A DNA stretch of 64,000 bases from a virus: IMG/VR virus record IMGVR_UViG_3300015371_000002, positions 60,251-124,250 of that record; one strand, given 5' to 3'. The stretch's first letter is position 1. Each line of letters begins with the position of its first letter. Below the pieces are notes generated by a model, which saw only the letters and a list, made by a program, of their open reading frames with translations, was not told the origin of the DNA and did not search any database. This document shows positions 7,861 to 61,160 of the stretch, one piece after another. The translations under genes were made by a program, and so were the position numbers.

Positions 7861-10221
7861 TCATACGTATTTGGCGTAGTCAATCCACTGCACGACGCCA
7901 GTGCGACGCTTGCGCCAATTGATCTCACGCTCTGCAAGAACCGCGGTCATATTTTCCTGCCACAGTGAGCGGTAAACAGTAGAGGCAGAGATCGGGCTAT
8001 CGGGCGCGCTATCGAACTGCAGCGAAGCCTGGTTGCTGCTGTCGATCGTCACGTTGCCGTCGTCGGCGAGCAGAATTTCGCCCGGCAAGATGAACGCGAT
8101 CATATAGCCATCCGTCGGCGAACCACCGGACGACGGCACGTTCGTGCTGGTGATGACGCGGAACCCGGCCAACGTGCCGCCACCGGCGGTGATGTCGGGG
8201 AACTCGCGTTGTCCAAGCGTATTCAGCATGAGGCTGAACGCGATCGCCTGGTTGACGTGCATGACCCACGTGCCGCCAGTCATGTCGAGATCCAGCGCTG
8301 CCATCGTGGTCAGCACCGTGCGGATGTTGGCGCGCGCGGCGTCGGCATCCGTGCCTGTTGCGGCAACAGCAGTAACGCCGTTGGTCAGTGACGCAGGCGA
8401 AGGACCGCCTGAACCCGTGCCGACGACCTTCGTGCTGTCGAGCAGGTCGGTGTCGAGCTTCTTGGCAATCGCTGCGACCATGTCCTGACGGATCATCGCT
8501 TCCAAACTTGGATTTGAGAACCGCAGGCTTTCGTTGGTGAATGCTACGAGCGCGGCAACCTTCGCGAAGGTCATCGTGATCGTATCAAACGCCGCGCTGC
8601 TCATGGGTTTAGACGATCCCTCGCCGACCCAATACGCTGTCGAACCGGATGACATCAATGGGACACGAATGTTAAATGGCACACGACGCATACCGCCAGC
8701 GAGCTTGTCGAGAATAGTCGCAGCACGAACCAGATCGATAAATTCACTGGCCATATACTGCAGCTGCACGAGGGGTGACGCCCACGTGGTATCGTAAGTG
8801 TTCGCCGGAGCGACTGCCGCCTTCAGCACCGTTGTGCCCTCGGCCGCAGCAAAGTTCAACACTTGTGCTACTTCCGGCGTGTCCTTCCATGCCTCACGCT
8901 GTGCGATCTGCACCGCCTGCTGCAAGTTGCCCTTCGACATCGCCTGTGCGGCAATGTAGCGAACGAACGCGGTGCCCTTCTCAAGCGGCGGACGCTTGAC
9001 CTGGACAACGGACGAAGTCTGGCGTGGCGCTAGCGACTGACCGGCATTGTAACCGATACGGTCGCCATCGACTGCTACCGCGGCCGAGATGTTCAGCTTC
9101 TCCTGCTCGCGTAGACGGGTCAGGTGCTTGTCAATCGACTTAATCTTGTCGTTCAGTTCGTCGTATTCGGTCTCCTGCTCCTCATCGAGCGTTGAGCCGT
9201 CTTCCGACGCCTTGCTCATCAGCTCGGACATCCGTGCTGCGTGTGCGGTTCGCGTCGATGCGTATGCGGCAATATCTTCCGCAATAGTTTTGGTTGCCAT
9301 TGGTGCCTCCCGGCTTGTCTGGCGGTTAACGGTCGCCGTGACGCCGGCGGGGTTCTGCTCAACACGCGGACTCTGCTTCTGGCCGGTCGCGGCCTGCAGC
9401 GCTTGCGTATCGAGGGATCTGATAAGCTGGATGGTGGCTTCCGATTGGGCTGGCACGGTCACGAGAGACAATTCATGCCAGTTCCATTCTTTAAACCGGA
9501 TGCCACCACCCTTAATCATCTCATATTGGTCTTTGATCGGCGTGAAACCGATGCTGACGCCTTTGACGAGTCCAGCGCGCACTGTCTGCCACGCCTCATC
9601 AACGCGATCCTTAAGTTTCCCGGGTTCCTCAACCTTGGCGATGCGTGCCTGGAACGAGATACCGCGGTCGGTCTTAGTTACGTGGGTAACCGTTCCGACC
9701 GGCTGGCTGTGCTGGTGCATCCATAGCAGCGGGATACTGACCGGCGTCGCGTATTTCGCACCCATGCTTTCCACGACGTCACCGACATGATCGACGGATG
9801 GCGTGGTAGCGATGCCGGAGATCATGCGTTCGCCTTCGTTGAGGCCCTTGACCTCCAGCGTTGTCGGCATCCATTTCATTTCGACCGGCGCGGAATGCAT
9901 CATCGGCGCGTCGGGCATCGATGGCTTGCTATCCATCCACGCCATCATGCAGGTTTCCTCGCTATCGCCGCCTTCGACGCATCTTTCCAAGAACGAAACC
10001 ATATCCTCCCCGCCACCGGGTGTGCAGCACGTCCCTGCCACATCGCGCTTTGGCGCCGGACCGTTCGCTGCGGACCCGTGATGTTCCCGCCAAAGATTCA
10101 GACATACGGCAATCCGTTGCCTGTTCGTAGCGAAATCATTATTGACCGTTGCATCGCCCATGCAGCGTGCCATCCACTGCTCGTTTGTCTCGCCTGATGG
10201 CTTAGGTTTTGGAAGCGGCAT
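7861..10221 (-). CDS. Prohead protease fused to HK97-type major capsid protein
   Basis: 786 residues. Residues 1-45 carry the ETNEQWMARCMGD...QRIAVC motif often found ahead of phage S78 proteases. Residues 120-290 are the prohead protease (MHQH at 168-171, KGVSIGF at 220-225 with the likely catalytic Ser). From about residue 308 (MATKTIAEDIAAYAS) an HK97-fold capsid begins, with a coiled-coil scaffold-like delta region and then the shell domain. The ATG at 10221 (GGAG upstream) is preferred over upstream in-frame codons. Fusion of protease and capsid in one frame is known but uncommon; an internal start is annotated separately. Confidence 0.92.
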   Translation of the reverse strand: MPLPKPKPSGETNEQWMARCMGDATVNNDFATNRQRIAVCLNLWREHHGSAANGPAPKRDVAGTCCTPGGGEDMVSFLERCVEGGDSEETCMMAWMDSKPSMPDAPMMHSAPVEMKWMPTTLEVKGLNEGERMISGIATTPSVDHVGDVVESMGAKYATPVSIPLLWMHQHSQPVGTVTHVTKTDRGISFQARIAKVEEPGKLKDRVDEAWQTVRAGLVKGVSIGFTPIKDQYEMIKGGGIRFKEWNWHELSLVTVPAQSEATIQLIRSLDTQALQAATGQKQSPRVEQNPAGVTATVNRQTSREAPMATKTIAEDIAAYASTRTAHAARMSELMSKASEDGSTLDEEQETEYDELNDKIKSIDKHLTRLREQEKLNISAAVAVDGDRIGYNAGQSLAPRQTSSVVQVKRPPLEKGTAFVRYIAAQAMSKGNLQQAVQIAQREAWKDTPEVAQVLNFAAAEGTTVLKAAVAPANTYDTTWASPLVQLQYMASEFIDLVRAATILDKLAGGMRRVPFNIRVPLMSSGSTAYWVGEGSSKPMSSAAFDTITMTFAKVAALVAFTNESLRFSNPSLEAMIRQDMVAAIAKKLDTDLLDSTKVVGTGSGGPSPASLTNGVTAVAATGTDADAARANIRTVLTTMAALDLDMTGGTWVMHVNQAIAFSLMLNTLGQREFPDITAGGGTLAGFRVITSTNVPSSGGSPTDGYMIAFILPGEILLADDGNVTIDSSNQASLQFDSAPDSPISASTVYRSLWQENMTAVLAEREINWRKRRTGVVQWIDYAKYV
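9298..9311 (-). promoter_or_regulatory. Strong internal ribosome site and ATG for the capsid part
   Basis: On the minus strand GGGAGG sits five bases before an in-frame ATG at 9300, exactly where the capsid domain begins. This is stronger than the site at the start of the whole frame. It predicts a second product, free capsid protein of about 479 residues (7861-9300), made in excess of the protease-capsid fusion. Confidence 0.65.
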
Positions 10222-26014: not shown

Positions 26015-26269
26015 TTACGCCGGATCGGGGTCGGGCTCCGGCTCATCGTTGGTGTCCTCGGTAATTCGCCCGTCTTTGCCGTCCAGCATGACACGGGCGG
26101 TAGCGCCCGCCGCGTTGGTCGCTGAGCAGGCCCAATTACGCCCGCGGTGCTTCAGATCGGTGACGTTGGTATAACCTGCATCGGCCAGTGCCTGCTCGGC
26201 TCCGGCATCGTCCTGCACGGCGTCGTGAGAGTGGCCGTGCGGGTGCGCTGGATGTGGAGGTGCAGCCAT
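26015..26269 (-). CDS. PepSY-like small protein, paralogue A
   Basis: 84 residues. After a His/Pro-rich start (MAAPPHPAHPHGHSHD), the segment ALADAGYTNVTDLKHRG...W and VMLDGKDGRITED resembles a single PepSY-like domain. The protein at 30655-30903 shares the same pattern (AGYTNVSDLTHRG...GKSGRVSED), so the two arose by duplication. Function unknown; PepSY domains often act outside the cytoplasm. Confidence 0.6.
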   Translation of the reverse strand: MAAPPHPAHPHGHSHDAVQDDAGAEQALADAGYTNVTDLKHRGRNWACSATNAAGATARVMLDGKDGRITEDTNDEPEPDPDPA

Positions 26270-26406: not shown

Positions 26407-26658
26407 TCACCGCAAGCCTTCGTCCTGATAGCCGCTATCCCATGCGCGCGCCTGTTCGGTGTCCCTGAAATAGGGGTTGTTCGAATCTTTTGCCTGTCGG
26501 CGCACCAGCATGCCTTGGACATAGGCGCGACCGATGCTCTGATTATGTGTCTCTTGGGCAGCGCTGTTCTCTGGCACCAACACCGGGACAGGCTTTGCCG
26601 ACGGCTTGTGGCCCCTAAGCCAGCGTCGCAACTGCTGATGCCATTTGGTCTCGGTCAT
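26407..26658 (-). CDS. Hypothetical protein (83 aa)
   Basis: Begins MTETKWHQQLRRWLRGHKPS, Pro/Val-rich middle, and ends ARAWDSGYQDEGLR. The ATG overlaps the stop of the 31-residue membrane protein (TGATG). No recognised domain. Confidence 0.6.
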   Translation of the reverse strand: MTETKWHQQLRRWLRGHKPSAKPVPVLVPENSAAQETHNQSIGRAYVQGMLVRRQAKDSNNPYFRDTEQARAWDSGYQDEGLR

Positions 26659-26771: not shown

Positions 26772-27542
<771 letters not shown>

Positions 27543-27545
27543 TCG

Positions 27546-27749
27546 CTATTTCATCCCTGTCAGGGCTGTTGTGCAAACGCTGAACAGCTTCATCACCGCT
27601 TCGATGCGCGTGATGGCCAAATCGTGCATGAACCATAGCATGCCGAGAATGAAGATGAGGTTTATACAGAGGAGCGCAACAAATGACGGCGGTAGTGTGC
27701 CGGTGACCTTGATGGCGACATCACGCACGTCTTCTGAGATTGTCATCAT
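27546..27749 (-). CDS. Small membrane protein, possible holin-type partner
   Basis: 67 residues. Begins MMTISEDVRDVAIKVTGTLP, then a single hydrophobic helix (FVALLCINLIFILGMLWF) and an amphipathic tail HDLAITRIEAVMKLFSVC. GGAG seven bases before the ATG. Immediately upstream of the coiled-coil gene and in the lysis neighbourhood; holin or antiholin is possible but unproven. Confidence 0.6.
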   Translation of the reverse strand: MMTISEDVRDVAIKVTGTLPPSFVALLCINLIFILGMLWFMHDLAITRIEAVMKLFSVCTTALTGMK

Positions 27750-27768
27750 ATCCACGCTCCATTTATAG

Positions 27769-27984
27769 TTAATTGCCGACGTTAGATTCGTCGTCAGGGG
27801 CGCGGATGCAGGTCACGAAACCGACGATATGGTGCTCTACGAACTCCCTATTCTTGCGCAATGCCATGATCTGACACGACACATGATCGAACAGAGTGCT
27901 AGGACTGTAGACAATGACGTGGGGCGGGACATCGGCCGACAGGATTGCTGCGGTGATAACCCACGCGCCCCAAATCGAGGTCAA
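27769..27984 (-). CDS. Hypothetical protein with N-terminal hydrophobic segment (71 aa)
   Basis: TTG start at 27984 overlapping the previous stop (TTGA). First 20 residues (TSIWGAWVITAAILSAD) look like a signal or anchor; the rest is soluble with two cysteines (SCQIM, VTCIRAP). No family recognised. Confidence 0.5.
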   Translation of the reverse strand: MTSIWGAWVITAAILSADVPPHVIVYSPSTLFDHVSCQIMALRKNREFVEHHIVGFVTCIRAPDDESNVGN

Positions 27985-28184
27985 TCCTCGACCGCTTCCC
28001 AGAGATCGCACACATCATCTGCCCTGGGCATTTCGTAGGGTGAGCCCATGCATAGACAGGCGCCGGGTGTGTCGGTCGCGAGGGTCTTTGCTTTCGTATA
28101 CCAATAATTGCAGAGATAGCAGGCGCGGCGTGGTTCTACGCTATCGACAACCTGCGGCGTGCTCTCTTGGGGAGCTGGTATCAT
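27981..28184 (-). CDS. Cysteine-rich small protein (67 aa)
   Basis: Begins MIPAPQESTPQVVDSVEP and contains CYLCNYWYTKAK...GACLCMGSP...VCDLWEAVED. Five cysteines in a pattern seen in small zinc-binding phage proteins. GGAGG nine bases before the ATG. Confidence 0.6.
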   Translation of the reverse strand: MIPAPQESTPQVVDSVEPRRACYLCNYWYTKAKTLATDTPGACLCMGSPYEMPRADDVCDLWEAVED

Positions 28185-28960
28185 GTGGTCGTGGCCTCCA
28201 TTAAACGAATGGTCCAGAAGGACGACGAAAGGTTACCAGTTATATAACTATATGGCATTGTGCAATAGCCATTTGCGCCCCAGTTAGCGCCCCAGCTATT
28301 TCTCACGATAAATCGCTGGGTGTGGTCATCATGACCAACGACGGCCATGCAATGCCCGCCCAGGTTTTCTTCACCGCGAGCTGGCAGCGGAACAACGCCG
28401 GTGTTGGCGACAGCGTCACTCTCGAAGCTCTCGAACACAGAACATCCGAAGACGACCGGGAAACCCTCGGTCAGGCAGGCCTTTATCTGCGTCGTTGATT
28501 TGGTGACGCTCCAATATTGCACCGACTGGCGTAACAGCGCATCGGTGTAGGCATTGGTCGGTGGCTTTACCGCGAACCGCGTAATGACGTAGGGCCATTC
28601 ATGCTCATGTGGCGCGCCGAATTTGGCAATCACCTTAATTCCATCGCGTATGGTGCACCCAGCGTCGATGCTGGTCGTGTGCTCCATGACGCGAGCGTTG
28701 TAATAGATAAACAAACGTGACGGGATGACGTCCGGCAGGTTCTGCCGCTTCCAGTCGAAATGCACGGCATAGGCGACGCCCTGGCCAACACATGACCCCA
28801 ACTGGCCCTGGTCCCAGATCGGCGGGCTTTGTGGCCGTAGGTCGGTCGCGGCCGGTAGGCCCACGCGCATAACCGCATACGGCGCGGCGTAGAGAAAGTC
28901 ATGGTCTGGCCGATCAGGATTCCACCCCATCCCGCCGTGTTTCAGATATTTCCGCCGCAT
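28181..28960 (-). CDS. Papain-like (C1) cysteine peptidase
   Basis: 259 residues. Catalytic layout is intact: QGQLGSCVGQG (oxyanion Gln near 51-53, nucleophile Cys 57), GGHCMAVVGHDD (His 203) and VRNSWGANWG (Asn 221). No signal peptide. ATG at 28960 (MRRKYLKHGG) with GGAGG close upstream. C1 peptidases in phages are unusual; position beside the holin-transglycosylase suggests a role in lysis, entry or processing of virion proteins. Confidence 0.85.
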   Translation of the reverse strand: MRRKYLKHGGMGWNPDRPDHDFLYAAPYAVMRVGLPAATDLRPQSPPIWDQGQLGSCVGQGVAYAVHFDWKRQNLPDVIPSRLFIYYNARVMEHTTSIDAGCTIRDGIKVIAKFGAPHEHEWPYVITRFAVKPPTNAYTDALLRQSVQYWSVTKSTTQIKACLTEGFPVVFGCSVFESFESDAVANTGVVPLPARGEENLGGHCMAVVGHDDHTQRFIVRNSWGANWGANGYCTMPYSYITGNLSSSFWTIRLMEATTT

Positions 28961-28971
28961 GCTGCCTCCGG

Positions 28972-30276
28972 TCAGTTGAACCAACCGTCAGCCGCCGCGA
29001 CAGCAACGGTGTCGTTGTAATAAAGCTTGGTCCGCGTCAGATGATCGCCGGTGCAGCGCAGCCTGTAGGGGTTGGTGTCCTCAGTGCGCGGCGGATACAG
29101 CCCGCCGGCATTGTAGGCGGCCGCGGCCAGGATCGGGTCGTAGAGCGTCTTGGGCCGCTGGCTAGCGAGATACGCGGTGCCCGCGGCGATGGAGACTTCC
29201 GGTTGATTGAGTTCTTGTGCGGTGACCGGACGCCCAAGCATTTCTGTTGCAGTGCCGAGAAGAACTTGCATCAGCCCGACCGACTGGCGCCCGTCCGGCT
29301 CAGAAAGCAGCGCCTTGGCAATGCCGCGCGACTCAACCGCGATGGTGGTGACGATCAGCTCGAGTGGCACGCCACTGGATAATGAGGCGGCTTTGATCTG
29401 CGTGCCAAAGTCCTTCCAGATCCTCCGAACCGTGACCGGCTCGCCAACGGTGCGGGCGGCTGATATTTCACCCTCATCCAATATACCGGTCGGCGTCACT
29501 TGCCAGCGCAATCCGCCGAACGGCCCCTGTTTCCAGGCAACCGTATCCGTGACCACCGTTGGCAGGACGGCAATGGGGGGCGGTGGTGTGGGTGTGGCGA
29601 TCTGCTTGACGATGGACGCCTGAACCGCGGCCGCATCACCAAGCTGCTGGCCCTGATGCGACAGCACCTGCGAGATGCTGTCGTCCTTGCCCTGCGAACG
29701 CGCATTGTCGCCGTAGTAGAACGAGATGATTTGCGAGGCATATCCGGCGATATTGCCCAGAATGGTGCCAATTATCGTATACCAGGCGGCCGCGAGGGCC
29801 GAATTCGTCGGGTTTGGCGATATGACGCCCGCAATCATCAAGATCGCGCCGATTACCACCAATAGCATCGAGCCGATGGCGAGGAAGACGATCGCCATAC
29901 CCCAGCGCATCATCGGCTGGGCGAGGACCGAGGCGATTTGGAAGCTGCGTGCGGAGGCCCGGTCTTTGTTGGCCAGTTCGGCGAATTTGAGGTCGTTGGC
30001 CAACTCGAACTGCTGAAGCTTGATCTCAGCGTCGCGCAGATTGGTCAGGAAGTCCGGATTGCCCGCATTTGCCTGGACGGTGGCCACCACGGCCGGGGGC
30101 GAAAGCGGAGCGTCAGGGGCAATATTCGCCGCTTGGTCTGGAGGCAGGAAAGCCCGAATGGCCGAACTAACGACGGCGGATGCGAGCAGATTGAATGGTG
30201 GTGGGACCAGTAGGCCCGCGAGCAGCGTCGGGGCGGATGATTTGAGGATGGATTCGACAATCGGTGGAAGTGCCAT
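28972..30276 (-). CDS. Holin-like membrane domain fused to lytic transglycosylase
   Basis: 434 residues. Residues 80-205 match the GTA-type 3TM holin layout: helices at about 126-150 and 161-188, then the conserved-looking FYYGDNARSQGKDD. After a Pro-rich linker (226-240), residues 290-430 form a soluble lytic transglycosylase (GH23): VESRGIA with catalytic Glu 315, GLMQV, and AYNAGG. Such enzymes cleave peptidoglycan. Fusing pore former and wall enzyme puts both lysis steps on one chain. ATG at 30276 is preferred, GGGGGAG upstream. Confidence 0.85.
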   Translation of the reverse strand: MALPPIVESILKSSAPTLLAGLLVPPPFNLLASAVVSSAIRAFLPPDQAANIAPDAPLSPPAVVATVQANAGNPDFLTNLRDAEIKLQQFELANDLKFAELANKDRASARSFQIASVLAQPMMRWGMAIVFLAIGSMLLVVIGAILMIAGVISPNPTNSALAAAWYTIIGTILGNIAGYASQIISFYYGDNARSQGKDDSISQVLSHQGQQLGDAAAVQASIVKQIATPTPPPPIAVLPTVVTDTVAWKQGPFGGLRWQVTPTGILDEGEISAARTVGEPVTVRRIWKDFGTQIKAASLSSGVPLELIVTTIAVESRGIAKALLSEPDGRQSVGLMQVLLGTATEMLGRPVTAQELNQPEVSIAAGTAYLASQRPKTLYDPILAAAAYNAGGLYPPRTEDTNPYRLRCTGDHLTRTKLYYNDTVAVAAADGWFN

Positions 30277-30654: not shown

Positions 30655-30903
30655 CTATGACTCCTCGGAATCCAAGGAGTTCAACTCGTCCTCGGAAACA
30701 CGGCCGCTTTTGCCCAGCACAATGACCTCGCATGAGACACCGGCAGGGTTGATCGCGGTGGCCATCCAGCCGTTACCCCGGTGAGTGAGATCAGAGACAT
30801 TGGTATAACCGGCGTTGTTTAGCGCCAGCAGCGCTTCGTCGTCGGTCTTCACGGCATCAATCGGATGGGATGGCGACGTCGGGAGGCGCATTAGCGTTTC
30901 CAT
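30655..30903 (-). CDS. PepSY-like small protein, paralogue B
   Basis: 82 residues, with ALLALNNAGYTNVSDLTHRG...VIVLGKSGRVSEDE, paralogous to 26015-26269. The N-terminal region differs (METLMRLPTSPSHP). Downstream of it lies the small zinc-binding-like gene. Confidence 0.6.
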   Translation of the reverse strand: METLMRLPTSPSHPIDAVKTDDEALLALNNAGYTNVSDLTHRGNGWMATAINPAGVSCEVIVLGKSGRVSEDELNSLDSEES

Positions 30904-31268: not shown

Positions 31269-31604
31269 TCAGGGAGCCGGCGGAGGCGCTGGCGTGTTCG
31301 CAGCAACGGCAGCGGCCAGGGCAGCGTCCTTCTGCTGTAGCTCGTCAGCAAGGGCCCGCAGCGCCACTGGATCATCGGCCAGTGCCCGGATCTGGTCGGC
31401 GAGGCCGCCGATTAGCGCAACTGCGCTGTCGACCACGCTGCTGTTGGCATGCACCTGCGCGGTAAGGGCGTCGAGTTCGGCTGACATGATTTGCTCCTGT
31501 TCGTAGATGGGGGCGAAGTTCTGCTGCAACTTCGCTGCAACAGCCGTGGCGATGGCATCGAGGTCGTCCGCCGTCAGGCGCACGGGGATGACTATCTCGG
31601 CCAT
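31269..31604 (-). CDS. Coiled-coil protein (111 aa)
   Basis: Begins MAEIVIPVRLTADDLDAIAT; heptad-like helices run from about residue 10 to 95, including TAQVHANSSVVDSAVALIGG, then APPPAP. Related small proteins occur in phage genomes near lysis or tail genes. An internal ATG (MSAELDALTAQ) is also possible. Function unknown. Confidence 0.65.
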   Translation of the reverse strand: MAEIVIPVRLTADDLDAIATAVAAKLQQNFAPIYEQEQIMSAELDALTAQVHANSSVVDSAVALIGGLADQIRALADDPVALRALADELQQKDAALAAAVAANTPAPPPAP

Positions 31605-47893: not shown

Positions 47894-48327
47894 GCTGGTA
47901 GCACCTCTCTCGCCCCCTGGTCAGGCCGTTGCGCAGCAGACTGGAGCAGCGAGCGTCGCCCGCAGCCACGCGAACAGAATGTGCTCCCGCTTAAGCTCAC
48001 GAACAGATTGCCGCATTGCGGACAGGTCGTGGGGTTCACCACCACCACCGTCTCCCTGGGCAACTTTCCGCTCTTGCCTTTGCGCCGTGGTTTGTCGAGA
48101 GTCACATCGTAGCAATACAATGTCGCGATCATTAGGTGCCAACGCATTTCCGCCGGACTGGCGAGCGTATCGTCTTTATTTGGTAGCGCGCACCACATGC
48201 GCGTAACGGTGTGCATCGGCATCAGCCCTGCGACCCTGTCGTAAATCTCCCCCAAGGTGGTTGGCTTATCTATGTGCTCGGTGAGATACCGGCGAAGTTC
48301 GATGCGCCATGCCGGCGGTTGCGCCAT
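47890..48327 (-). CDS. Protein with C-terminal zinc ribbon (145 aa)
   Basis: Residues 95-125 (TCPQCGNLFVSLSGSTFCSR followed by GCGRR) form a zinc ribbon. N-terminal half helical (RRYLTEHIDKPTTLGEIYDR). Overlaps the ParB-like gene end by about 57 bases. Confidence 0.6.
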   Translation of the reverse strand: MAQPPAWRIELRRYLTEHIDKPTTLGEIYDRVAGLMPMHTVTRMWCALPNKDDTLASPAEMRWHLMIATLYCYDVTLDKPRRKGKSGKLPRETVVVVNPTTCPQCGNLFVSLSGSTFCSRGCGRRSLLQSAAQRPDQGAREVLPA

Positions 48328-49316
48328 TCGTTGGCCCTCTCTTTTTCCTCGATCAGCTTGTCCACCTCAGCCATGACCTCGGCGATGACCGTGGCGGCGT
48401 CCTCCAGCATTTTGCGCTCGCCCTTCAATTCTTGCGCCGTGAACCCGCCGAGATAGAGTTTATCTGGCGATCCTGGATACGCCTTCACCATGCCACGAGG
48501 CCTGGACAGAAACGCCGTTCCCTTGGCCTTCGGTGTGCGGCTGCGCTTGCCGCGGTTCTCCGCCTCGATCTGCGCCATCTCCCGGTCACGCTCTTCAATG
48601 AGCTTCAGTGCTTGCCGCTCACTGGTCTTCTCCTTGAGCTCCTTGATCAGCGACGTTGCGGCGCTGGTGCGCAGATCAGGATAGCGAGCGATCAGTCTCA
48701 CCGCCTCGGTGAAGATGACGTCGTTGTTCAGGCCGAACAGCGGTTGTTTCAGAGCCTTGAACTTGTCGTGGGAGATCTCGGCACCCACGCCAAGACGCTG
48801 CGCGCGCTCGGCGACCTCATTCTCCCTGAGATGGTTGGCGACCGTCTGCGGCCTCAAGCCAAAGCGCACGGCCAGCTCGTTGACCGGGACATCCGGATAC
48901 AGCCGATGGATTTCGGCGATGTGGTTGAGCTTCTCCATCTGATCGGGCGCACGACCTTCGATGTTATTGATCGTGCGCAGCAATAGTTCCACGCGATACG
49001 GATCGGCGTCACGAACAACATAAGCATCTAGCGCGTCGATCTCCGCTTCCTTCGCGCCCTCGATGCGGTGACGACCGGTTATTAGCCGGCTAGGCTTATT
49101 GTCGCCGGCATCCAACACCACGATGGCGGGGAAGTCCGCTCCATCGATCATCGCCAACCCGTAACTCAATGCCCGATCCTTATCGAGCTTCTTATACAGC
49201 CGAGCAGGATTGGCGTCGGCCTCCTTCAGATCAATCGCCGCAAACTTGAGCTGCTTGACGAAGACATGGCCATAGCCGTTAGCCTTCAGGAAATTCTCGG
49301 TCTTCGGGTCCCTCAT
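48270..49316 (-). CDS. ParB-like nuclease-fold protein A
   Basis: 348 residues. ParB/Srx core with ITGRHRIEGAKEAEIDAL at about 79-96, then an HTH (VPVNELAVRFGLRPQTVANH) near 143-162 and a long basic helical tail. ATG at 49316 with AAGGA upstream. Could regulate partition, replication or gene expression. No ParA gene adjoins it. Confidence 0.75.
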   Translation of the reverse strand: MRDPKTENFLKANGYGHVFVKQLKFAAIDLKEADANPARLYKKLDKDRALSYGLAMIDGADFPAIVVLDAGDNKPSRLITGRHRIEGAKEAEIDALDAYVVRDADPYRVELLLRTINNIEGRAPDQMEKLNHIAEIHRLYPDVPVNELAVRFGLRPQTVANHLRENEVAERAQRLGVGAEISHDKFKALKQPLFGLNNDVIFTEAVRLIARYPDLRTSAATSLIKELKEKTSERQALKLIEERDREMAQIEAENRGKRSRTPKAKGTAFLSRPRGMVKAYPGSPDKLYLGGFTAQELKGERKMLEDAATVIAEVMAEVDKLIEEKERANEWRNRRHGASNFAGISPST

Positions 49317-49932: not shown

Positions 49933-50129
49933 GGCCACCCGACGCTTGCGGCGTGTTCCAGACACAGGTTGAGGTCGGGGTGCGGTGACGGCTCGAGCGC
50001 CGCTGCTCGGAGCGATGGCGGCAGCGTTGTCGCATCCTGTCCGGGTGACACGACCACGACGTCCCTCTGGCACCCGTCGAACGAGCACTTCCGTTGCTTC
50101 CATTTCGCTTCCTCGTGGGTATTCGTCAT
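49833..50129 (-). CDS. Cysteine/histidine-containing small protein (98 aa)
   Basis: Begins MTNTHEEAKWKQRKCSFDGC; NLCLEHAASVGWPW completes a C-x4-C...C-x2-H set. Strong AGGAGG upstream. It overlaps 49932 gene's start by 100 bases in another frame, so the C-terminus could be shorter in reality. Confidence 0.5.
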   Translation of the reverse strand: MTNTHEEAKWKQRKCSFDGCQRDVVVVSPGQDATTLPPSLRAAALEPSPHPDLNLCLEHAASVGWPWRSERLNTRTHRKPSAAAAKTGAKTKLIAVNG

Positions 50130-50284
50130 TGGGGGGCCTCCTTGGGGTTAGTTGGGTAATTCGGCAGTTTGCCGGTCGGCTCGTAGCTCCAGTAATCGTA
50201 ACGCAACGCTTTGACCGGTGACGTGCGATCGCCTTCGGTCCAGACGTGGTCGCCGCGGCGTTCGTTGTATTGGGGCGGCTTCAT
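50126..50284 (-). CDS. Small protein (52 aa)
   Basis: Begins MKPPQYNERRGDHVWTEGDR and ends KLPNYPTNPKEAPQ. Overlaps neighbours by four bases both sides. Confidence 0.55.
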   Translation of the reverse strand: MKPPQYNERRGDHVWTEGDRTSPVKALRYDYWSYEPTGKLPNYPTNPKEAPQ

Positions 50285-50505
50285 GCCGCCTTCCCTTCCT
50301 GCACCGACGCCTCGAACCACGCGCGGTGCTCTCGGCAGGTCCATGCCTGCTCCTTACAGAACGGCGGGCCATAGCCGAACGATGGATGGACAGTGCAGCC
50401 GGGATGGGCGCACCTGCGTGCATCGTATTCGCGCACCCATGCTTGCTTGGTGGGTTTTTTCTTCTGGTCGTCGGGCTGACCGAACAGATCAGGTATCTCA
50501 ACCAT
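50281..50505 (-). CDS. Zinc-binding-like protein (74 aa)
   Basis: RCAHPGCTVHPSFGYG...FCKEQAWTCREHRAWFE: C-x4-C...C...C-x2-H set. Coupled to the primase-helicase gene (stop/start within the same base run). Confidence 0.6.
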   Translation of the reverse strand: MVEIPDLFGQPDDQKKKPTKQAWVREYDARRCAHPGCTVHPSFGYGPPFCKEQAWTCREHRAWFEASVQEGKAA

Positions 50506-52304
50506 CAGTCAGTCACCCAGCTTGGTGGCGGTGGAATCGGTTCCGCGTCAGATGGGTCGCGATAGCGGTTGGACGCTGACTCGAAATCCATGATCGCCCG
50601 CCGCCCGCGCGCCGACCAGCGCTTGGACTTAGATTTCCAAACGTATAGTCCAACGGCGCCATCTTTTTCGTGGTGCACGGTGATCCCAAGGTCGCTCTTG
50701 TTTGCCCAGTGCTGGCTTCCCGAGATTGAATATCCGACCGGCACCATGTAATCGCCCCGATCCTTTGACGGCGCCGGCTTTGCCGGATGCGCTATGACCC
50801 ACACATTGCAGCCATACCGCTGCGCGAACGAGCGAAACCGTTGCAATGCTTTGCCGATGAAGTCCGTCTCCGGCGTATCGCCACGCTGTTGGTCTATCTC
50901 GTTCCACGGATCTACCATCAGATCGGTAACGCCATAACGAACGACCGTAGCAGCAGCCCGTTCGAGCACCCAGTCCATGGTGGGCGCTTCGTCCTCAGCA
51001 TCGCATACCATCATTGTCACACGCCCGTTAAGCCAATCACCCGCATGAGCGATTTCCGCATCGCTCATTGTGTCCATGCCTGGGACGCTCCAGAACGGCT
51101 TGCCCGAGTAGACCTCCGCACATTCAGCAGCAAAATATTCCCACGGTTGATGTTCTGGGGAGAACACGGCCCAAACACGATCATGGCGTCTAATCGTGTG
51201 GATCATGACGAACCGCGCCCAGCTGGTTTTGCCGTGACCCGCATATCCGGTGACGATGATTAGCCTACCGTCTCCGGGGAATTTGAGAATTTCATCGGTC
51301 GCACGGATGCCTGTCGTTAGCACAGGAGGGGGTGGTCTGTTACGCAAAGCGAGCAGCGGTTGCGGCCCGATTTCGTAAATGCCTTTGATCGGGTAGGGCA
51401 GCGCGCCGGCAATTGTCGCAACAAGCGCGTCAACCCCATCGCGGATTAATGTGTCACAGGCATCCTTGCAACCATCCGGCCACGTCGCAAGAAAGCACCG
51501 GTGCCGTCCGAGCCGCCGCGCCAATTCCTCGCGAAGCGCTAAACCGGGCGCGTCAGTGTCGCCGGCCAACACGATCCGTTTTGCCTTGACCAGCAGGTCC
51601 GCATGCGTGCGTAGGGCGGCGAAGCGTTTATCGTTTGGGTTGGCTGTATCGGAAACTGTGATGCCTGCGCCGTCCTTGAGCGTTACCGCGTTCGTCAGCC
51701 CGCACTCGTGCAGCGCCATGACATCCGGCTCACCCTCGACCCAGATGATTTCCTTCGGTTCATCACCGACAGCATCAACGTTGAACAACGTCGGCAGCGC
51801 GTTTGCTTCCTGCATCTGCGGCTGCTTGTCTGGGTCCGGACGATACTTCCGATTTACGACATCGCCCTTGAGCCGATATGGAAAGACGATGGCTGGCCGC
51901 TTACCAAGACCCTGGAAATTCCTGGTGACGGAATAACAGCCGAAATAGTCCACCGTCCGCGCGCCGATATGCCGATCGGCGAAGAAGCGATACATCCACT
52001 CAGGCTTTTCGCTGTCGTCCTGTGGCGCTGGCTTGCGTGGCGGCGCCTGCGGTTCATCCCATTTGGTATGCCGCTCGCGCTCCTCTCCGCGGACACGCTC
52101 CCCGGCCGTCCACTGACATTTCCCGCGCCAGCACTTCACGACGACGCCTAGCCCGTCGTCATCGATTTTCACCTGCAGGCTCTTTTCCCGCGTGCGCCCG
52201 CCATCGCAGCGTGGGCAGACAACCTCCTCCTGCGCTCCCGGGCGCATCGACCGCAGGTTGCGGATGCCGAAGTTGTCCAGAATTCCCGCGACGCTGTCGG
52301 CCAT
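50505..52304 (-). CDS. Primase-helicase (T7 gp4/Twinkle type)
   Basis: 599 residues. N-terminal zinc ribbon (Cys 30, 33, 58, 63), TOPRIM primase with EGEPDVMAL (190-198) and AGDTDAPG (247-254), and a RecA-like DnaB-class helicase with Walker A GYAGHGKTSW (353-362) and a Walker B-like DLMVDPWNE. Makes primers and unwinds DNA at the fork. ATG at 52304 overlaps the initiator stop (TGATG), so the two are coupled, as in lambda O-P. Confidence 0.9.
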   Translation of the reverse strand: MADSVAGILDNFGIRNLRSMRPGAQEEVVCPRCDGGRTREKSLQVKIDDDGLGVVVKCWRGKCQWTAGERVRGEERERHTKWDEPQAPPRKPAPQDDSEKPEWMYRFFADRHIGARTVDYFGCYSVTRNFQGLGKRPAIVFPYRLKGDVVNRKYRPDPDKQPQMQEANALPTLFNVDAVGDEPKEIIWVEGEPDVMALHECGLTNAVTLKDGAGITVSDTANPNDKRFAALRTHADLLVKAKRIVLAGDTDAPGLALREELARRLGRHRCFLATWPDGCKDACDTLIRDGVDALVATIAGALPYPIKGIYEIGPQPLLALRNRPPPPVLTTGIRATDEILKFPGDGRLIIVTGYAGHGKTSWARFVMIHTIRRHDRVWAVFSPEHQPWEYFAAECAEVYSGKPFWSVPGMDTMSDAEIAHAGDWLNGRVTMMVCDAEDEAPTMDWVLERAAATVVRYGVTDLMVDPWNEIDQQRGDTPETDFIGKALQRFRSFAQRYGCNVWVIAHPAKPAPSKDRGDYMVPVGYSISGSQHWANKSDLGITVHHEKDGAVGLYVWKSKSKRWSARGRRAIMDFESASNRYRDPSDAEPIPPPPSWVTD

Positions 52305-53095
52305 CACGGGCACCACGACGGCACGGGCTGGCGATACGGCGACGCCGGCCGCGCGGGAGGTTTATCTTGCTCGCTGCGTTGGTCACGATAACGGACGTAA
52401 TTCAGACACCAAGTGCGCCAGGAAGCTCCCCAGTCTGCGCTGTCGGTTCCGTTGGCCTGATGGTAGGCCACGAAGCGCGCTATTTCTGCGAGCGGGACGC
52501 CCCGTTCGGTGGCGAAGGCGCTTGCCTTTCCGTCCGCGGACCAGTCCTCCGGGATCGTCGTTCTGCTGCGTGGCTTCGGAGTAGCCTTTTGGCGCTTCGG
52601 TTTCCCGCGCGCGCGATAAGACTCCAAACTATGAATATTAGATTCTGGTTCTTTCCTTGGTTCATTGGATAGATTCCCTCCCTGATTTGGGAGGGGGGGG
52701 GATCCATTTTTGGTAGCCCCCCCTTCCGTATTTGGTATCCCCACCTCTTCCGTTTTTGGTATCCCCTCCCCTTCCATATTCGGTAGGGGGACCCCTTCCG
52801 CATTTGGTAGGGGGGTATCTCCGATTTTGAGACGATACTCAGCGCTGAGGTGGGGCTTGCTGGCATCATCGCCAGGCCGCAGACACCGCTCGGTGAGACC
52901 TGAAGCGCAGAGAGCCGAGAGGGCCTTGCGGACCGTCTTTGGATTGAGATGCGTTCGGCGGCAGATTGTCTGGATAGAGGGGAAGGCGCGTTCGCCCTCT
53001 TTATTGGCATACCAAGCAAGACAGACTAACACCAGCTTGGCGGCACTCGTGGGGCATTCCTGCTCCCACGCCCAAGACTGTGCGCTGAAGCTCAT
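52304..53095 (-). CDS. Replication initiator with internal iterons
   Basis: 263 residues. N-terminal winged helix of the HTH_36 type (CPTSAAKLVLVCLAWYANKE, FPSIQTICRRTHLNPKTVRK). The middle is a series of 8-residue repeats (PLPNAEGV, PLPNMEGE, GIPKTEEV, GIPNTEGG) encoded by 24-bp DNA repeats. The C-terminal third (ERGVPLAEIARFVAYHQANG...WRTWCLNYV) resembles helicase-loading domains. Layout strongly matches phage initiators such as lambda O, with the origin inside the gene and the helicase next. Confidence 0.8.
   Translation of the reverse strand: MSFSAQSWAWEQECPTSAAKLVLVCLAWYANKEGERAFPSIQTICRRTHLNPKTVRKALSALCASGLTERCLRPGDDASKPHLSAEYRLKIGDTPLPNAEGVPLPNMEGEGIPKTEEVGIPNTEGGATKNGSPPLPNQGGNLSNEPRKEPESNIHSLESYRARGKPKRQKATPKPRSRTTIPEDWSADGKASAFATERGVPLAEIARFVAYHQANGTDSADWGASWRTWCLNYVRYRDQRSEQDKPPARPASPYRQPVPSWCP
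52702..52831. repeat. 24-bp iterons, predicted replication origin
   Basis: TTCC units begin at 52724, 52748, 52772 and 52796, exactly 24 bases apart, with consensus TTCCGTATTTGGTA followed by a C- or G-run; partial units begin at 52702 and 52819. An A+T-rich stretch (52621-52680) flanks them. Iterons in an initiator gene followed by an AT-rich region is the classic lambdoid origin arrangement. Confidence 0.85.
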
Positions 53096-53235
53096 GGCGT
53101 GGCATCCACGCCGCGCCATTGCACGACGTTGGCAGCCTGCACCCATAGGAATGCTGCCCAGCGGGCTTCAAGCCGAGAATGATAGCGGCGACCGCGATAG
53201 ACGGTCGGGATAGCCGCTATCCAGTAGCCGCTCAT
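53092..53235 (-). CDS. Small conserved phage protein (YRSRLEARWA type, 47 aa)
   Basis: MSGYWIAAIPTVYRGRRYHS followed by RLEARWAAFLWV; this RxYxSRLEARWA signature recurs in phage and plasmid accessory proteins of unknown role. Overlaps both neighbours by four bases; lies in the replication operon. Confidence 0.65.
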   Translation of the reverse strand: MSGYWIAAIPTVYRGRRYHSRLEARWAAFLWVQAANVVQWRGVDATP

Positions 53236-53591
53236 GCGTCGACTCCGGGTTCGGTTGTGGGAAGGCCGCTGCGCACGGGCGGATCCAGCAGATGAAAGCG
53301 GCTGACCCCGTGGGCGACCGGCTCGGCGCGGACCAGATGCTTCTGCTCCAGCGACTCGATCGCGCGGTAGACATTGGCGCGTTGGCCGCTGCGGCTGATG
53401 TGGTCGGCGATGGCCTGGATGGTCAGCCGGCAGCTATTGCCGTCGGCCCGTCCGACGAGGACCGCATAGACCAGTTGCTGGAAAGTGCTGAGATCTGGCG
53501 TGGCGAGCGCCGCCATGACCCGGCTGGTGCCCGTGGGCGCCTCGCCGATACCACCCCTAGTGCCTGTCGCGAAAGAATCATCAAATATCAC
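53232..53591 (-). CDS. Winged-helix protein, first gene of the replication operon
   Basis: 119 residues. PDLSTFQQLVYAVLVGRADG, then LTIQAIADHISRSGQRANVYR and AIESLEQKHLVRAEP form a MarR-like winged helix. GTG start at 53591 with AAGG upstream. Directly downstream of the dyad operators at 53611-53670, so it is a good candidate for autoregulation. Confidence 0.65.
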   Translation of the reverse strand: MIFDDSFATGTRGGIGEAPTGTSRVMAALATPDLSTFQQLVYAVLVGRADGNSCRLTIQAIADHISRSGQRANVYRAIESLEQKHLVRAEPVAHGVSRFHLLDPPVRSGLPTTEPGVDA

Positions 53592-53610
53592 ACCGACCGC
53601 CTTGATTTTG

Positions 53611-53670
53611 GCGTTCGCGTGTGCGAAAAGGCGCTTGCGAGGGCGACCTGTTTTCGCACCATGCGAACGC
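53611..53670. promoter_or_regulatory. Two dyad operators arranged as a larger inverted repeat
   Basis: TTCGC-GTGT-GCGAA (53614-53627) and TTCGC-ACCAT-GCGAA (53653-53667) are each palindromic. Extended arms (GCGTTCGC...GCGAAAA at 53611-53629 and TTTTCGC...GCGAACGC at 53651-53670) are also near-reverse complements of each other. Likely binding sites controlling the replication operon. Confidence 0.7.
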
Positions 53671-53686
53671 TAGGTTAATCTAACAG

Positions 53687-53718
53687 ACGCCGCCGGGACC
53701 CAACCCCGGCGGCGTTTT
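53687..53718 (+). terminator. Rho-independent terminator, plus orientation
   Basis: ACGCCGCCGGG (53687-53697), seven-base loop, CCCGGCGGCGT (53705-53715), followed by TTTTG. A perfect 11-bp stem. No plus-strand gene precedes it, so it may end a small antisense RNA across the operator region. Confidence 0.75.
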
Positions 53719-53871
53719 GCGTTATACGCCTATCAGCCCCCGTTGCAAGCGAACATCGCCAATTTCCCCATATGGCAACCCATCATTGCGGGGGATAAGT
53801 GGCGTTCGCCTATCAGGCGTTGCATCGTGCGTCAGTATGCAGCAAGTTGCACGCGAAATACCGTCGCAGGA

Positions 53872-54324
53872 CTACCCCGTCTGGTTGCTTAATGGCGCGT
53901 CGTTATCACTGACTAGGTGCGGCCTTTCGCCACGCACAACCGTCTGCTGGATTGACAGCTCCGTAATACGATGGTTAGCCACCTCCAGTTGTTCGCCTAG
54001 GACCTGCAGCGCTTCGTTCAACTGGCTGATCCGCATATGGTCCTGCCGCGTCTGCGCCTGTCGCTCAACGGCGGCATCGGGCCGTGGCGGGAAGAAGGCG
54101 CGGCCATGACCGCCCCGTAGTTGCAGGACGCGCTCCCGCTCGCTGGCCAATTGCTCGCGCAACTGGCGGGCCTGGTCGTGCACTGCGGCGAGTTCGCGGT
54201 CTTTTCCGTCGATCAATAGCCAGGCCTGCTCGAGCTCGGCCCGCAGTCGTTTGGTCAACTCACTGGCGTTGGCGCGCATGTGCGAATCGCATTGCTTCCG
54301 GTTGTGGTTCTGCGACTGTGGCAA
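53872..54324 (-). CDS. Coiled-coil protein, paralogue 1
   Basis: 150 residues. Coiled coil ASELTKRLRAELEQAWLLID...REQLASERERVLQL, a linker, then a second coil ISQLNEALQVLGEQLEVANH. Shares its segment order with 54369-54710, so the two are tandem duplicates. TTG at 54324 or ATG at 54279 are alternative starts. Function unknown. Confidence 0.6.
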   Translation of the reverse strand: MPQSQNHNRKQCDSHMRANASELTKRLRAELEQAWLLIDGKDRELAAVHDQARQLREQLASERERVLQLRGGHGRAFFPPRPDAAVERQAQTRQDHMRISQLNEALQVLGEQLEVANHRITELSIQQTVVRGERPHLVSDNDAPLSNQTG

Positions 54325-54368
54325 ATAGGTAACGGGTGGCCAAGCGGCAAATACCGCTCGGAGGTATG

Positions 54369-54710
54369 TTACCTGGGCGCGTTGGGCGGCGGGCGCCGGA
54401 GGCTGAACAGGCGCTCCTGGATGCGGTGGTGAGCCGCCTCCAATTCTTCATTCATGATTTGTAATTCTTCATTGATGTGGCTGTGTTTTTCGTCTTCCAG
54501 AAGCCGGTGAACCTCAGTGGCGGCTTTGCTTAAGTCGTGCTCGAGGCTATGCCGCTGCTGCATTTCGCTGACCAGCATGCCGCGCAGCCGTCGGTTTTCG
54601 GCATGCTGCGCTGCAATGTCCGACTCCAAAGTTTCGATATATTTCCTCGCAACATTCAGCTCTTCGGTCAGGCTGCGCGTAAGTTCGCTCTGCCGTGTCC
54701 GGACTATCAT
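54369..54710 (-). CDS. Coiled-coil protein, paralogue 2
   Basis: 113 residues. QSELTRSLTEELNVARKYIE...RRLRGMLVSEMQQRHSL and HINEELQIMNEELEAAHHRI correspond to the two coils of paralogue 1. Role unknown. Confidence 0.6.
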   Translation of the reverse strand: MIVRTRQSELTRSLTEELNVARKYIETLESDIAAQHAENRRLRGMLVSEMQQRHSLEHDLSKAATEVHRLLEDEKHSHINEELQIMNEELEAAHHRIQERLFSLRRPPPNAPR

Positions 54711-54833
54711 ATGCCACCCACGCTACTCTGGCGGGAGGTAGGGTATAGTTATTCGCCGTGAATACAAGCGTTGCCGGTTGCAACGCCCAGCGAAGCGGCA
54801 ATCAACGCTTAGCGAGGCGGGTGGGCTAAGCGT

Positions 54834-54974
54834 TTATGGCAAAAGGATTACAAGCCACAGCACCCCTAGACCGGCGACCAGATTAACGCTGGCCAGCCAC
54901 GTCAGGGTGCCTAGCCTACGCTCAATCATGGTTAGCTTGCGCTCGATACTCATGGTTCTCTCAAATAAAAGCAT
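54834..54974 (-). CDS. Small membrane protein (46 aa)
   Basis: Begins MLLFERTMSIERKLTMIERR, then a hydrophobic helix LVAGLGVLWLVILLP. AAGGAG seven bases before the ATG. Forms a two-gene unit with the RHH regulator just upstream. Confidence 0.55.
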   Translation of the reverse strand: MLLFERTMSIERKLTMIERRLGTLTWLASVNLVAGLGVLWLVILLP

Positions 54975-54985
54975 AACGCTGCTCC

Positions 54986-55162
54986 TTATTTTTTCTTCGT
55001 TGCTCCGTGGTGCTCGCAGTCCTGCTCGCTAAGCACCTGATCAATCATGCGGCGTATTGATTCAGCGCGACTCGGTAGATCGGATTGCTGTCGCCGCCAA
55101 TCGTCAATCTGCCGAACCATGTCGGGCGACAGTTTAAGCGTCAGCGCGTGAGTGAGAGGCAT
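54986..55162 (-). CDS. Ribbon-helix-helix regulator
   Basis: 58 residues, paralogue of 46868-47038. Strand THALTLKLSPDMV, helices DDWRRQQ and SRAESIRRMIDQ. Divergent from the ParB-like gene at 55282; the palindrome between them is the likely operator. ATG at 55162. Confidence 0.75.
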   Translation of the reverse strand: MPLTHALTLKLSPDMVRQIDDWRRQQSDLPSRAESIRRMIDQVLSEQDCEHHGATKKK

Positions 55163-55174
55163 TTTCACAATCCC

Positions 55175-55203
55175 TTGACACTTGGGGTGCCCCAATATAT
55201 GTG
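55175..55203 (+). promoter_or_regulatory. Divergent promoter with GGGG-TG-CCCC operator
   Basis: -35 TTGACA (55175-55180), 17 bases, -10 TATGTG (55198-55203). Spacer is TTGGGG-TG-CCCCAA (55182-55195), a near-perfect palindrome. TATATT reads on the minus strand for the RHH gene. Regulator binding would shut both promoters. Confidence 0.7.
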
Positions 55204-55281
55204 ATGCTCGGTCACTCAGAGAAGCCCGATCAACGGAAATGGTTCCAGCGACGGATCCGCGAATGACCAGGAGCGAAAACA

Positions 55282-56247
55282 ATGGTTCAGTTCACTATTG
55301 ATCTGGCCTCAACGTCATCGGCTGCCTTCGGCAACCTCATCGAGCAGTTCGAGAAATGGAAGCAGGACTCTCCGCCTGCACCGTTTGGCCTGACGACGGG
55401 TATCCATACGATTACCCCTGAGCAGGCCGAGGAGCTGCTGAAGCGCAATCGGAAGAACCGTTCAGTTGATATGAGGACGGTTCAAAACTATGCCGTCCAA
55501 CTGATGCGGCAAGAGTGGAAGATTACTGGACAGCCCGTGATCTTTACTGAGCAGGGCAACCTCTTGGACGGGCAGCACCGTTTGTGGGCTTGCTATCTGA
55601 GCGGAGTGCCGATCACCACATATGTGGTAACCGGCATCCCCGATCAGGATAACCTGTTCGCCTACGTCGACAATTGTCGGCCACGCTCGGCCGGCGATGC
55701 TTTGCAGACTGCTGGGTTGAATGGCCTCGCCAAGCACGTGGCGGCAGTCATTCAGGAGTTCGCTCATCGCTATGATGAAGGAGCGCTCGGCGTATCTGGC
55801 CGTGTCTTCGGTATGACGTTGTCCAACCGCGAAGTGCTTGGTTACATGCAGGACCATCCTGACCTGATGGATGTCGCCCGCTATGTAGACAAGATGCACA
55901 AGCAGGCGAAGGCCAAGTTGGGCGCCTCGATCACTACGTTCCTGGCATGGAAGATCGAACAGCTCTATGGCCGGGAGACTGTCGATGAGTTCTTTCACTC
56001 ACTCATCGCAGTTGATTTGCCTAACGACCATCCGGTCACGATGCTGCGCAAGTATATCGAACCGCCGACCCTGACGCCGAAACAGCGGCAGGCAGGCATT
56101 ACCGCGAAGCAACCTCCGGCAAAGACCCGGCTGGCCATGGCCATCGCTGCCTTTAATGCGGTGCAGTCTGGTCAGCGCCTTAAGAAGCTGCAGATCGACC
56201 CGATGAATTCTTACGTCATCAATGAGCCGGTTGCGCAGGCAGCCTAA
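55282..56247 (+). CDS. ParB-like protein B
   Basis: 321 residues. ITPEQAEELLKRNRKNRSVD, NLLDGQHRLWACYLSGVPI (93-111), RPRSAGDAL: a ParB/Srx-fold phage protein family. AGGAG upstream. Likely DNA-binding regulator; no enzyme role assigned. Confidence 0.75.
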   Translation: MVQFTIDLASTSSAAFGNLIEQFEKWKQDSPPAPFGLTTGIHTITPEQAEELLKRNRKNRSVDMRTVQNYAVQLMRQEWKITGQPVIFTEQGNLLDGQHRLWACYLSGVPITTYVVTGIPDQDNLFAYVDNCRPRSAGDALQTAGLNGLAKHVAAVIQEFAHRYDEGALGVSGRVFGMTLSNREVLGYMQDHPDLMDVARYVDKMHKQAKAKLGASITTFLAWKIEQLYGRETVDEFFHSLIAVDLPNDHPVTMLRKYIEPPTLTPKQRQAGITAKQPPAKTRLAMAIAAFNAVQSGQRLKKLQIDPMNSYVINEPVAQAA

Positions 56248-56296
56248 CGGATGGGGGCGGCGGAGACGCCGCCCTTCATTCTCTGGAGCACGTGTC

Positions 56297-57322: not shown

Positions 57323-57335
57323 AGGAGCCAGTGTG

Positions 57336-57500
57336 ATGAACGAAGAGGCATCTGGATTAGCGCACGAGATCGAACATCTGATGCGATCAATTAGACTGAC
57401 AGATCCAAAGAAATTTGTCGAGCTTTGCGATTTGCTCGGGGTTGATCCGGAGGATTTTGACAAGTTCCTTAAGGAGGACGTTGCGCGCCAGGATAATTGA
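57336..57500 (+). CDS. Small acidic protein (54 aa)
   Basis: Begins MNEEASGLAHEIEHLMRSIR; ends DFDKFLKEDVARQDN. AAAGGAG ten bases upstream. Unknown. Confidence 0.6.
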   Translation: MNEEASGLAHEIEHLMRSIRLTDPKKFVELCDLLGVDPEDFDKFLKEDVARQDN

Positions 57501-57503
57501 GCA

Positions 57504-57770
57504 ATGATTGACAAAGAGGCTGCTGAATTGGCGGTTGCTGCTCTGCTTGAAGCACGCCAAGTCGCGCTGGAAAGGGCGGCTCGGTTGCGCGCTGATGCAC
57601 CGGACCCACGCGGTCGAGTTCGCCTTACGCTGATTAGACAGGCTGTTTCGCTGGAGCGAAATGCCAGACTGCTCTCTGGCGTTATTGACACTCTTAAGGC
57701 GTGGGAAGCGCGCGACCAGACGCTCCGGCGGTTCGCTCATTACACTTTAAAGGGAGAAGGAAATGACTGA
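57504..57770 (+). CDS. Helical protein (88 aa)
   Basis: Begins MIDKEAAELAVAALLEARQV; helical throughout with many Arg. Overlaps the next gene by eight bases. No family. Confidence 0.6.
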   Translation: MIDKEAAELAVAALLEARQVALERAARLRADAPDPRGRVRLTLIRQAVSLERNARLLSGVIDTLKAWEARDQTLRRFAHYTLKGEGND

Positions 57771-58227: not shown

Positions 58228-58233
58228 CTCATC

Positions 58234-60225: not shown

Positions 60226-60249
60226 TGGCAAGAAAAACCAACAAGATTT

Positions 60250-61135: not shown

Positions 61136-61160
61136 TGCCAGCCGCCTCTGCTGTCATAAT

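What the first reader, a model, noticed from the sequence alone, without database searches (positions are those of the whole stretch)
28181..30276. Papain-like protease next to a holin-transglycosylase fusion
The C1 peptidase has its full catalytic set and lies immediately downstream of a protein joining a GTA-like 3TM holin domain and a transglycosylase. Peptidase, pore and wall enzyme together suggest a new combination for lysis or release.
Basis: partly seen in the sequence, partly recalled or inferred. Interest (0 to 1): 0.7.

Follow-up and report, generated by a model that had tools for sequence, protein, structure and literature searches.

The report
Papain-like protease in phage lysis cassette
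A tailed phage carries an intact papain-like protease gene coupled to a membrane-anchored cell-wall-cutting enzyme, and related proteases turn up in the lysis gene sets of several other phages, so the protease is probably a helper in bursting the host, although its exact job is untested.

Summary
On the minus strand a 259-aa xylellain-type C1A (papain-like) peptidase (Q51/C57/H203/N221) starts 11 nt after a 434-aa protein with an N-terminal membrane domain and a C-terminal SLT transglycosylase (E315). Four small genes follow, tightly packed, two of them clear membrane proteins. The record is a tailed phage. The "GTA 3TM holin" label is weak: no PF11351 match; the domain belongs to phrog_1544 and is modelled as a two-helix hairpin, although its only significant fold match bears that name. 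Xylellain-type peptidases are already known in phages and are common in viruses and bacteria. In phages the peptidase lies nearer to wall hydrolases than chance predicts (pooled p 0.005), and its close neighbours are small membrane or lipoproteins more often than for other genes (24% vs 11%, p 1e-4); bacterial copies show no such excess. It sits inside lysis cassettes with SLT, GH24, SleB-type, M23 or amidase endolysins, and is fused into one annotated endolysin. Many phage copies lie elsewhere. Most likely this is a lysis operon with an auxiliary protease: a little-described variant rather than a one-off. Lysis and peptidase activity are untested.

The parts
28972..30276 (-). g46, 434 aa: phrog_1544-type membrane domain (residues 1 to about 205; hairpin about 125-187), linker with a proline run, SLT transglycosylase domain (294-392, catalytic E315)
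   Evidence: start at 30276 chosen by gene scoring, GGAG upstream
28181..28960 (-). g45, 259 aa: xylellain-type C1A papain-like peptidase, Q51/C57/H203/N221, no signal sequence
27981..28184 (-). g44, 67 aa, cysteine-rich, unknown; overlaps g45 by ATGA
   Evidence: no family match
27769..27984 (-). g43, 71 aa, unknown, weak hydrophobic stretch; TTG start overlaps g44 by 4 nt
   Evidence: start uncertain
27546..27749 (-). g42, 67 aa, one TM helix; holin-like candidate by size and place only
   Evidence: no phage homologue
26772..27542 (-). g41, 256 aa, one TM helix followed by a long stretch that looks like coiled coil; inner-spanin-like candidate by shape only
   Evidence: no phage homologue; no lipoprotein partner found

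Best explanation
Window 26772-30276 (minus strand) is most likely the lysis operon of a tailed phage of a Gram-negative, probably alphaproteobacterial, host. g46 is a membrane-anchored endolysin: its phrog_1544-type hairpin holds an SLT transglycosylase at the inner membrane. The coupled, signal-less papain-like peptidase g45 is made late, stays in the cytoplasm until the membrane is opened (by the small membrane proteins or by g46 itself), and then helps envelope breakdown by cutting host proteins. Shown: intact enzymes, tight gene packing, and recurrence of this peptidase type in phage lysis cassettes. Inferred: late expression, passage through the opened membrane, and the substrates (envelope or periplasmic proteins rather than peptidoglycan).
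For: Intact catalytic sets and an 11-nt gap; operon with two small membrane proteins. The peptidase type is found in lysis cassettes: L044 lysozyme, phrog_1544 membrane gene, peptidase; L067 SLT, Rz-like, peptidase; L032 endolysin, peptidase, holin/Rz-like; L030 SleB-type hydrolase, peptidase; Gordonia and Arthrobacter phages, protease packed with lysin A and holin or membrane genes; THSA-485A after a GH25 enzyme; fused into an annotated endolysin in MMB025. Nearer to wall hydrolases than random, pooled p 0.005; small membrane or lipoprotein neighbours 28/115 vs 134/1222, p 1.3e-4, with no excess in bacterial loci. No other lysozyme or over-threshold SLT was seen in the parts of the record scanned.
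Against: Many phage copies lie outside lysis regions. In the window the operon is separated from the structural genes by a block of plus-strand genes. No holin or spanin family is matched by g41-g44. If the hairpin is N-in/C-in, the SLT domain would start in the cytoplasm. The direct viral-versus-cellular comparison of neighbours is not significant (p 0.21). Nothing was measured in cells.
Confidence: 0.55

Rival explanations
1. The peptidase is a movable accessory gene of phages (host take-over, or protein degradation during infection) that works in the cytoplasm and happens to be inserted beside the endolysin gene.
For: Phage copies occur near CTP synthase and ribonucleotide reductase genes, tRNA genes and an HNH gene. 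The gene is common in bacteria without any lysis context, has no signal sequence, and viral copies are scattered on the tree.
Against: Excess of wall hydrolase and small membrane gene neighbours in viral loci, overlapping gene ends in several lysis cassettes, and a fusion into an annotated endolysin.
Confidence: 0.25
2. g45 processes g46: the peptidase cuts the linker between the membrane hairpin and the SLT domain and so frees a tethered endolysin, setting the time of lysis.
For: Coupled genes; a linker of about 90 residues with a proline run between hairpin and SLT domain; the modelled even number of TM helices would leave the SLT domain on the side of the N-terminus, tethered (inference).
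Against: In L044 the membrane gene and the lysozyme are separate, yet the peptidase is there too, and most other cassettes have unanchored endolysins, so this cannot be the general role. The R. jaguaris fusion protein has no C1 peptidase among the genes annotated around it.
Confidence: 0.08
3. Both proteins are virion parts used at entry: the SLT domain opens the wall, the membrane domain the inner membrane, and the peptidase trims capsid or ejected proteins.
For: g46 also matches PHROGs for internal virion proteins with an endolysin domain and for lytic tail proteins. In L019 and L012 the peptidase lies among apparent structural genes.
Against: The phage has its own head maturation protease fused to the major capsid protein. 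The genes lie apart from the structural block, with small membrane genes.
Confidence: 0.1

Closest known systems
Xylellain (Xylella fastidiosa C1A peptidase, PDB 3ois) and short bacterial xylellain-type C1A peptidases
   Same: Aligned over residues 6-253, E 3e-50; same catalytic residues. Presence in Myoviridae and Siphoviridae already reported (PMC10380794).
   Different: Phage gene in a lysis-type operon; shorter N-terminal region (the alignment starts at residue 28 of 3ois).
Lysis cassettes of Gordonia phages (Aleemily, Sixama, GMA2, Lilbeanie) and Arthrobacter phage Mufasa8
   Same: C1-type cysteine protease packed with endolysin and holin or membrane genes
   Different: Actinobacterial hosts, separate lysin A genes (C39, amidase, glycosyl hydrolase or M23), some with lysin B; protease only distantly similar
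Lysis region of viral record L044 (IMGVR_UViG_3300034069_000472)
   Same: Wall enzyme, phrog_1544-type membrane protein and C1 peptidase in tandem
   Different: GH24-type lysozyme and membrane protein are separate genes there; in the window the membrane domain is fused to an SLT domain
Membrane-SLT fusion on Rhizobium jaguaris plasmid pRCCGE525a
   Same: Same two parts in the same order, 40.6% identity
   Different: 779 aa with PG_binding_1 and a further C-terminal part; no C1 peptidase annotated nearby
GTA_holin_3TM (PF11351)
   Same: The best fold match of the modelled domain carries this name
   Different: No profile match in the window protein or its aligned relatives; two TM helices modelled, not three

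Membership tests
C1A papain-like peptidase, xylellain type | Gln/Cys/His/Asn catalytic set | tested here: met
   Q51, C57, H203, N221; invariant in 150 sequences
C1A papain-like peptidase, xylellain type | Profile and sequence match to PF00112 and xylellain | tested here: met
   PF00112 E 4.5e-11; 3ois E 3e-50
C1A papain-like peptidase, xylellain type | Peptidase activity | not testable with these tools
   needs purified enzyme
SLT lytic transglycosylase | PF01464 match with catalytic Glu, GLMQ and AAYNAG motifs | tested here: met
   E 3e-13; E315, GLMQ 334, AAYNAG 386
GTA_holin_3TM (PF11351) | Profile match | tested here: not met
   none at E 10 for the window domain, none in 34 aligned members at E 0.01; whole-record search uninformative, no control rang
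GTA_holin_3TM (PF11351) | Three TM helices | tested here: inconclusive
   two in the model; a third hydrophobic stretch at 18-36 is broken by prolines; one fold hit bears the name
phrog_1544 | Profile match | tested here: met
   E 1.4e-6; all 34 aligned members match
Gram-negative phage lysis cassette | Endolysin gene | tested here: met
   g46 SLT domain; activity not tested
Gram-negative phage lysis cassette | Holin | tested here: inconclusive
   g42 and the g46 hairpin are candidates by shape only; no holin family matched
Gram-negative phage lysis cassette | Spanin pair | tested here: inconclusive
   g41 is inner-spanin-like in shape; no lipoprotein found at 24.5-33 kb by a simple lipobox scan
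Gram-negative phage lysis cassette | Late, co-transcribed expression | not testable with these tools
   gene overlaps suggest co-transcription; promoter scan no better than shuffles

The most novel reading that the evidence does not exclude
Papain-like proteases are a recurrent extra component of phage lysis cassettes in Gram-negative and Gram-positive hosts: they act after membrane opening on envelope or tether proteins (and, in this window, perhaps also release a membrane-anchored transglycosylase), a protein-cutting step added to the holin, endolysin and spanin steps.
Probability: 0.3. Interest if true: 0.7.

Novelty: new variant of a known kind. Interest (0 to 1): 0.5.

Why it matters
Phage lysis is usually explained by holin, endolysin and spanin (plus lysin B in mycolate hosts). 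A protease linked to lysis cassettes across several phage groups would add a proteolytic step and point to envelope proteins as a barrier worth attacking. The question is directly testable in cultured phages that carry the gene between lysin A and holin. It would also give a function to some of the many xylellain-type peptidases in viral genomes.

Tried and rejected
Direct viral-contig scans with the single proteins found no relatives; alignments were needed. g46 had no phage hit. The single-sequence fold of g46 was poor (pLDDT 43) and was not used. GTA_holin_3TM membership was rejected on the profile test; the last whole-record search was uninformative because no control rang. A unique combination was rejected in view of the other cassettes. 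A tight partnership of this peptidase with SLT enzymes was rejected: only 1 of 50 viral records has an SLT within 3 kb. The idea that phrog_1544 genes always follow endolysins was rejected: only a minority of 62 upstream genes match endolysin families. GH108 search: no match, and no control rang. g41 and g42 have no phage homologues. The promoter and terminator scan was no better than shuffles.

Full report
What is there. The window is G000:C1:60251-124250 of a 124,250-base virus record. It is a tailed phage: terminase large subunit, portal, a major capsid protein fused to a head maturation protease, and tail fibre genes lie on the minus strand below 14.8 kb, and a tape measure protein lies in the rest of the record. 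The portal's best relatives are EBPR siphovirus 3 (49%) and a Rhizobium phage (48%), and the only plasmid relative of g46 is from Rhizobium jaguaris, so an alphaproteobacterial host is likely (inference).

The two genes. g46 (28972-30276, minus) has an SLT domain (PF01464, E 3e-13, residues 294-392) with E315, GLMQ and AAYNAG. Its N-terminal part matches phrog_1544 (E 1.4e-6, unknown function). With a 34-row alignment it is modelled as two long helices, 98-148 and 160-227, mean pLDDT 85. PF11351 (GTA_holin_3TM) is not matched by it at E <= 10, nor by any of the 34 aligned members at E <= 0.01, but the one significant Foldseek hit is named 'Holin of 3TMs' (E 6e-5, TM-score about 0.4). g45 (28181-28960, minus) is a C1A peptidase, closest in the PDB to 3ois, the xylellain structure (E 3e-50), with Q51, C57, H203 and N221, all invariant in 150 collected sequences.

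The operon. g46 and g45 are 11 nt apart. g45 overlaps g44 by ATGA, g44 overlaps g43 by 4 nt, then come g42 (67 aa, one TM) and g41 (256 aa, one TM followed by what looks like a long coiled coil) after gaps of 19 and 3 nt. No lipoprotein was found at 24.5-33 kb by a simple lipobox scan. g41 and g42 have no phage homologues. No phage lysozyme exists elsewhere in the record, and the proteins scanned in the rest of it show only a sub-threshold SLT in the tape measure.

How common the peptidase is. Alignment-based scans found at least 468 viral and 547 bacterial or archaeal stretches with a relative. In a tree of 150, viral and cellular copies are strongly clustered (8 changes of label, about 51 in shuffles), and the window copy is not placed with support. 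A published survey had already reported that xylellain-type C1A peptidases were acquired by Myoviridae, Siphoviridae and Mimiviridae (PMC10380794).

Lysis linkage, by example. L044: phage lysozyme, a phrog_1544-type membrane gene, then the peptidase. L067: a small membrane protein, an SLT endolysin, an Rz-like gene with an embedded lipoprotein, a small TM protein, then the peptidase. L032: a GH24-type endolysin, the peptidase, then a holin/Rz-like gene with an embedded lipoprotein. L030: a SleB-type hydrolase (PF07486) directly before the peptidase, then a small TM protein and a lipoprotein. L013, L025 and L042: an amidase upstream with small TM genes between. Annotated phages: Gordonia Aleemily, Sixama, GMA2, Lilbeanie and Arthrobacter Mufasa8 carry a cysteine protease packed with lysin A and holin or membrane genes; Mufasa8 lysin A is an M23 peptidase. 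THSA-485A has it after a GH25 enzyme. In Alicyclobacillus phage MMB025 the peptidase domain is part of an annotated endolysin with glycoside-hydrolase-like and peptidoglycan-binding domains. GMA2's protease was listed as a putative lysin from a domain motif (PMC4524720), and BetterKatz gp29, a cysteine protease-like protein, as a predicted endolysin (PMC4982276). None of the papers found here describes the general pattern; absence from this library does not prove that it is undescribed.

Lysis linkage, by number. In records with an SLT, Amidase_2 or phage lysozyme domain over its cut-off in a protein under 600 aa, the peptidase lies closer to it than random placement predicts: p 0.021 in the first set, 0.034 in a fresh set, 0.005 pooled with one of a related pair dropped. 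An earlier version included families picked after seeing neighbours and is not relied on. Independently, tight same-strand neighbours of viral copies are small membrane or lipoproteins in 28 of 115 cases, against 134 of 1222 for other genes in the same loci (odds ratio 2.6, p 1.3e-4); for bacterial copies it is 7 of 47 against 97 of 637, no difference. The direct comparison of viral with cellular peptidase neighbours is not significant (p 0.21). ORFs were called mechanically and some viral records are near relatives, so these p values are approximate. Only 1 of 149 relatives has an N-terminal hydrophobic stretch, so the enzyme is probably cytoplasmic until a membrane is opened.

Limits. Many phage copies are elsewhere: beside CTP synthase and ribonucleotide reductase genes, among tRNA genes, among hypothetical genes in FLC9, beside an HNH gene in Mycobacterium phage Indlovu, or among apparent structural genes. 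The peptidase is therefore a mobile accessory gene that is repeatedly, but not always, part of a lysis cassette.

The fusion. Of 86 further members of the g46 N-terminal family, 85 are stand-alone proteins; only one, on Rhizobium jaguaris plasmid pRCCGE525a, is joined to an SLT domain as in the window (779 aa, with PG_binding_1). In some phages the stand-alone gene follows the endolysin directly, but most upstream genes in 62 loci match no endolysin family.

Mechanism. C1A enzymes cut ordinary peptide bonds, so protein substrates are more likely than peptidoglycan stem peptides (established knowledge; not tested). The most likely course is late synthesis, opening of the inner membrane, transglycosylase attack on the wall, and protease attack on envelope proteins. 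What is shown here is only the presence and integrity of the genes and their recurrent linkage; the rest is inference.

Verdict. Observation confirmed; interpretation partly supported; a new variant of a known kind (a phage lysis cassette with an auxiliary protease), of moderate interest.

Noticed in passing
window 26407-26658 (-): 83-aa protein matching ribosome modulation factor (PF04957, E 3.6e-7, over its cut-off), just downstream of the lysis-type operon; an RMF-like gene in a phage could bear on translation shut-off.
   Followed up: no
window 26015-26269 (-) and 30655-30891 (-): Two small proteins (g39, g48) that look like paralogues by eye (AGYTNV.DL.HRG...) bracket the operon on either side.
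   Followed up: no
window 31269-31604 (-) and L045:1108-1317: g50 has a relative (E 2.6e-14) a few hundred bases upstream of the peptidase in viral record L045, a hint of a wider shared neighbourhood.
   Followed up: partly
window 7861-10221 (-): Major capsid protein fused to a head maturation protease in one 786-aa protein.
   Followed up: no
G000:C1 about 50058-61600 (L247, L248; window 571-1320): A run of genes that includes a two-domain methyltransferase protein and a glycosyltransferase family 9 member, suggesting glycan synthesis or modification by the phage.
   Followed up: no
window 48270-49316 (-) and 56297-57322 (+): Two different ParB-like proteins in one phage.
   Followed up: no
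G000:C1 2070-3056 (L245): IS1595-type transposase gene near one end of the virus record.
   Followed up: no
L242, L335, L336, L339: In four Gordonia phage groups a hypothetical gene of about 125 aa always precedes the cysteine protease with overlapping ends; GMA2 annotates it as a putative lysin.
   Followed up: no
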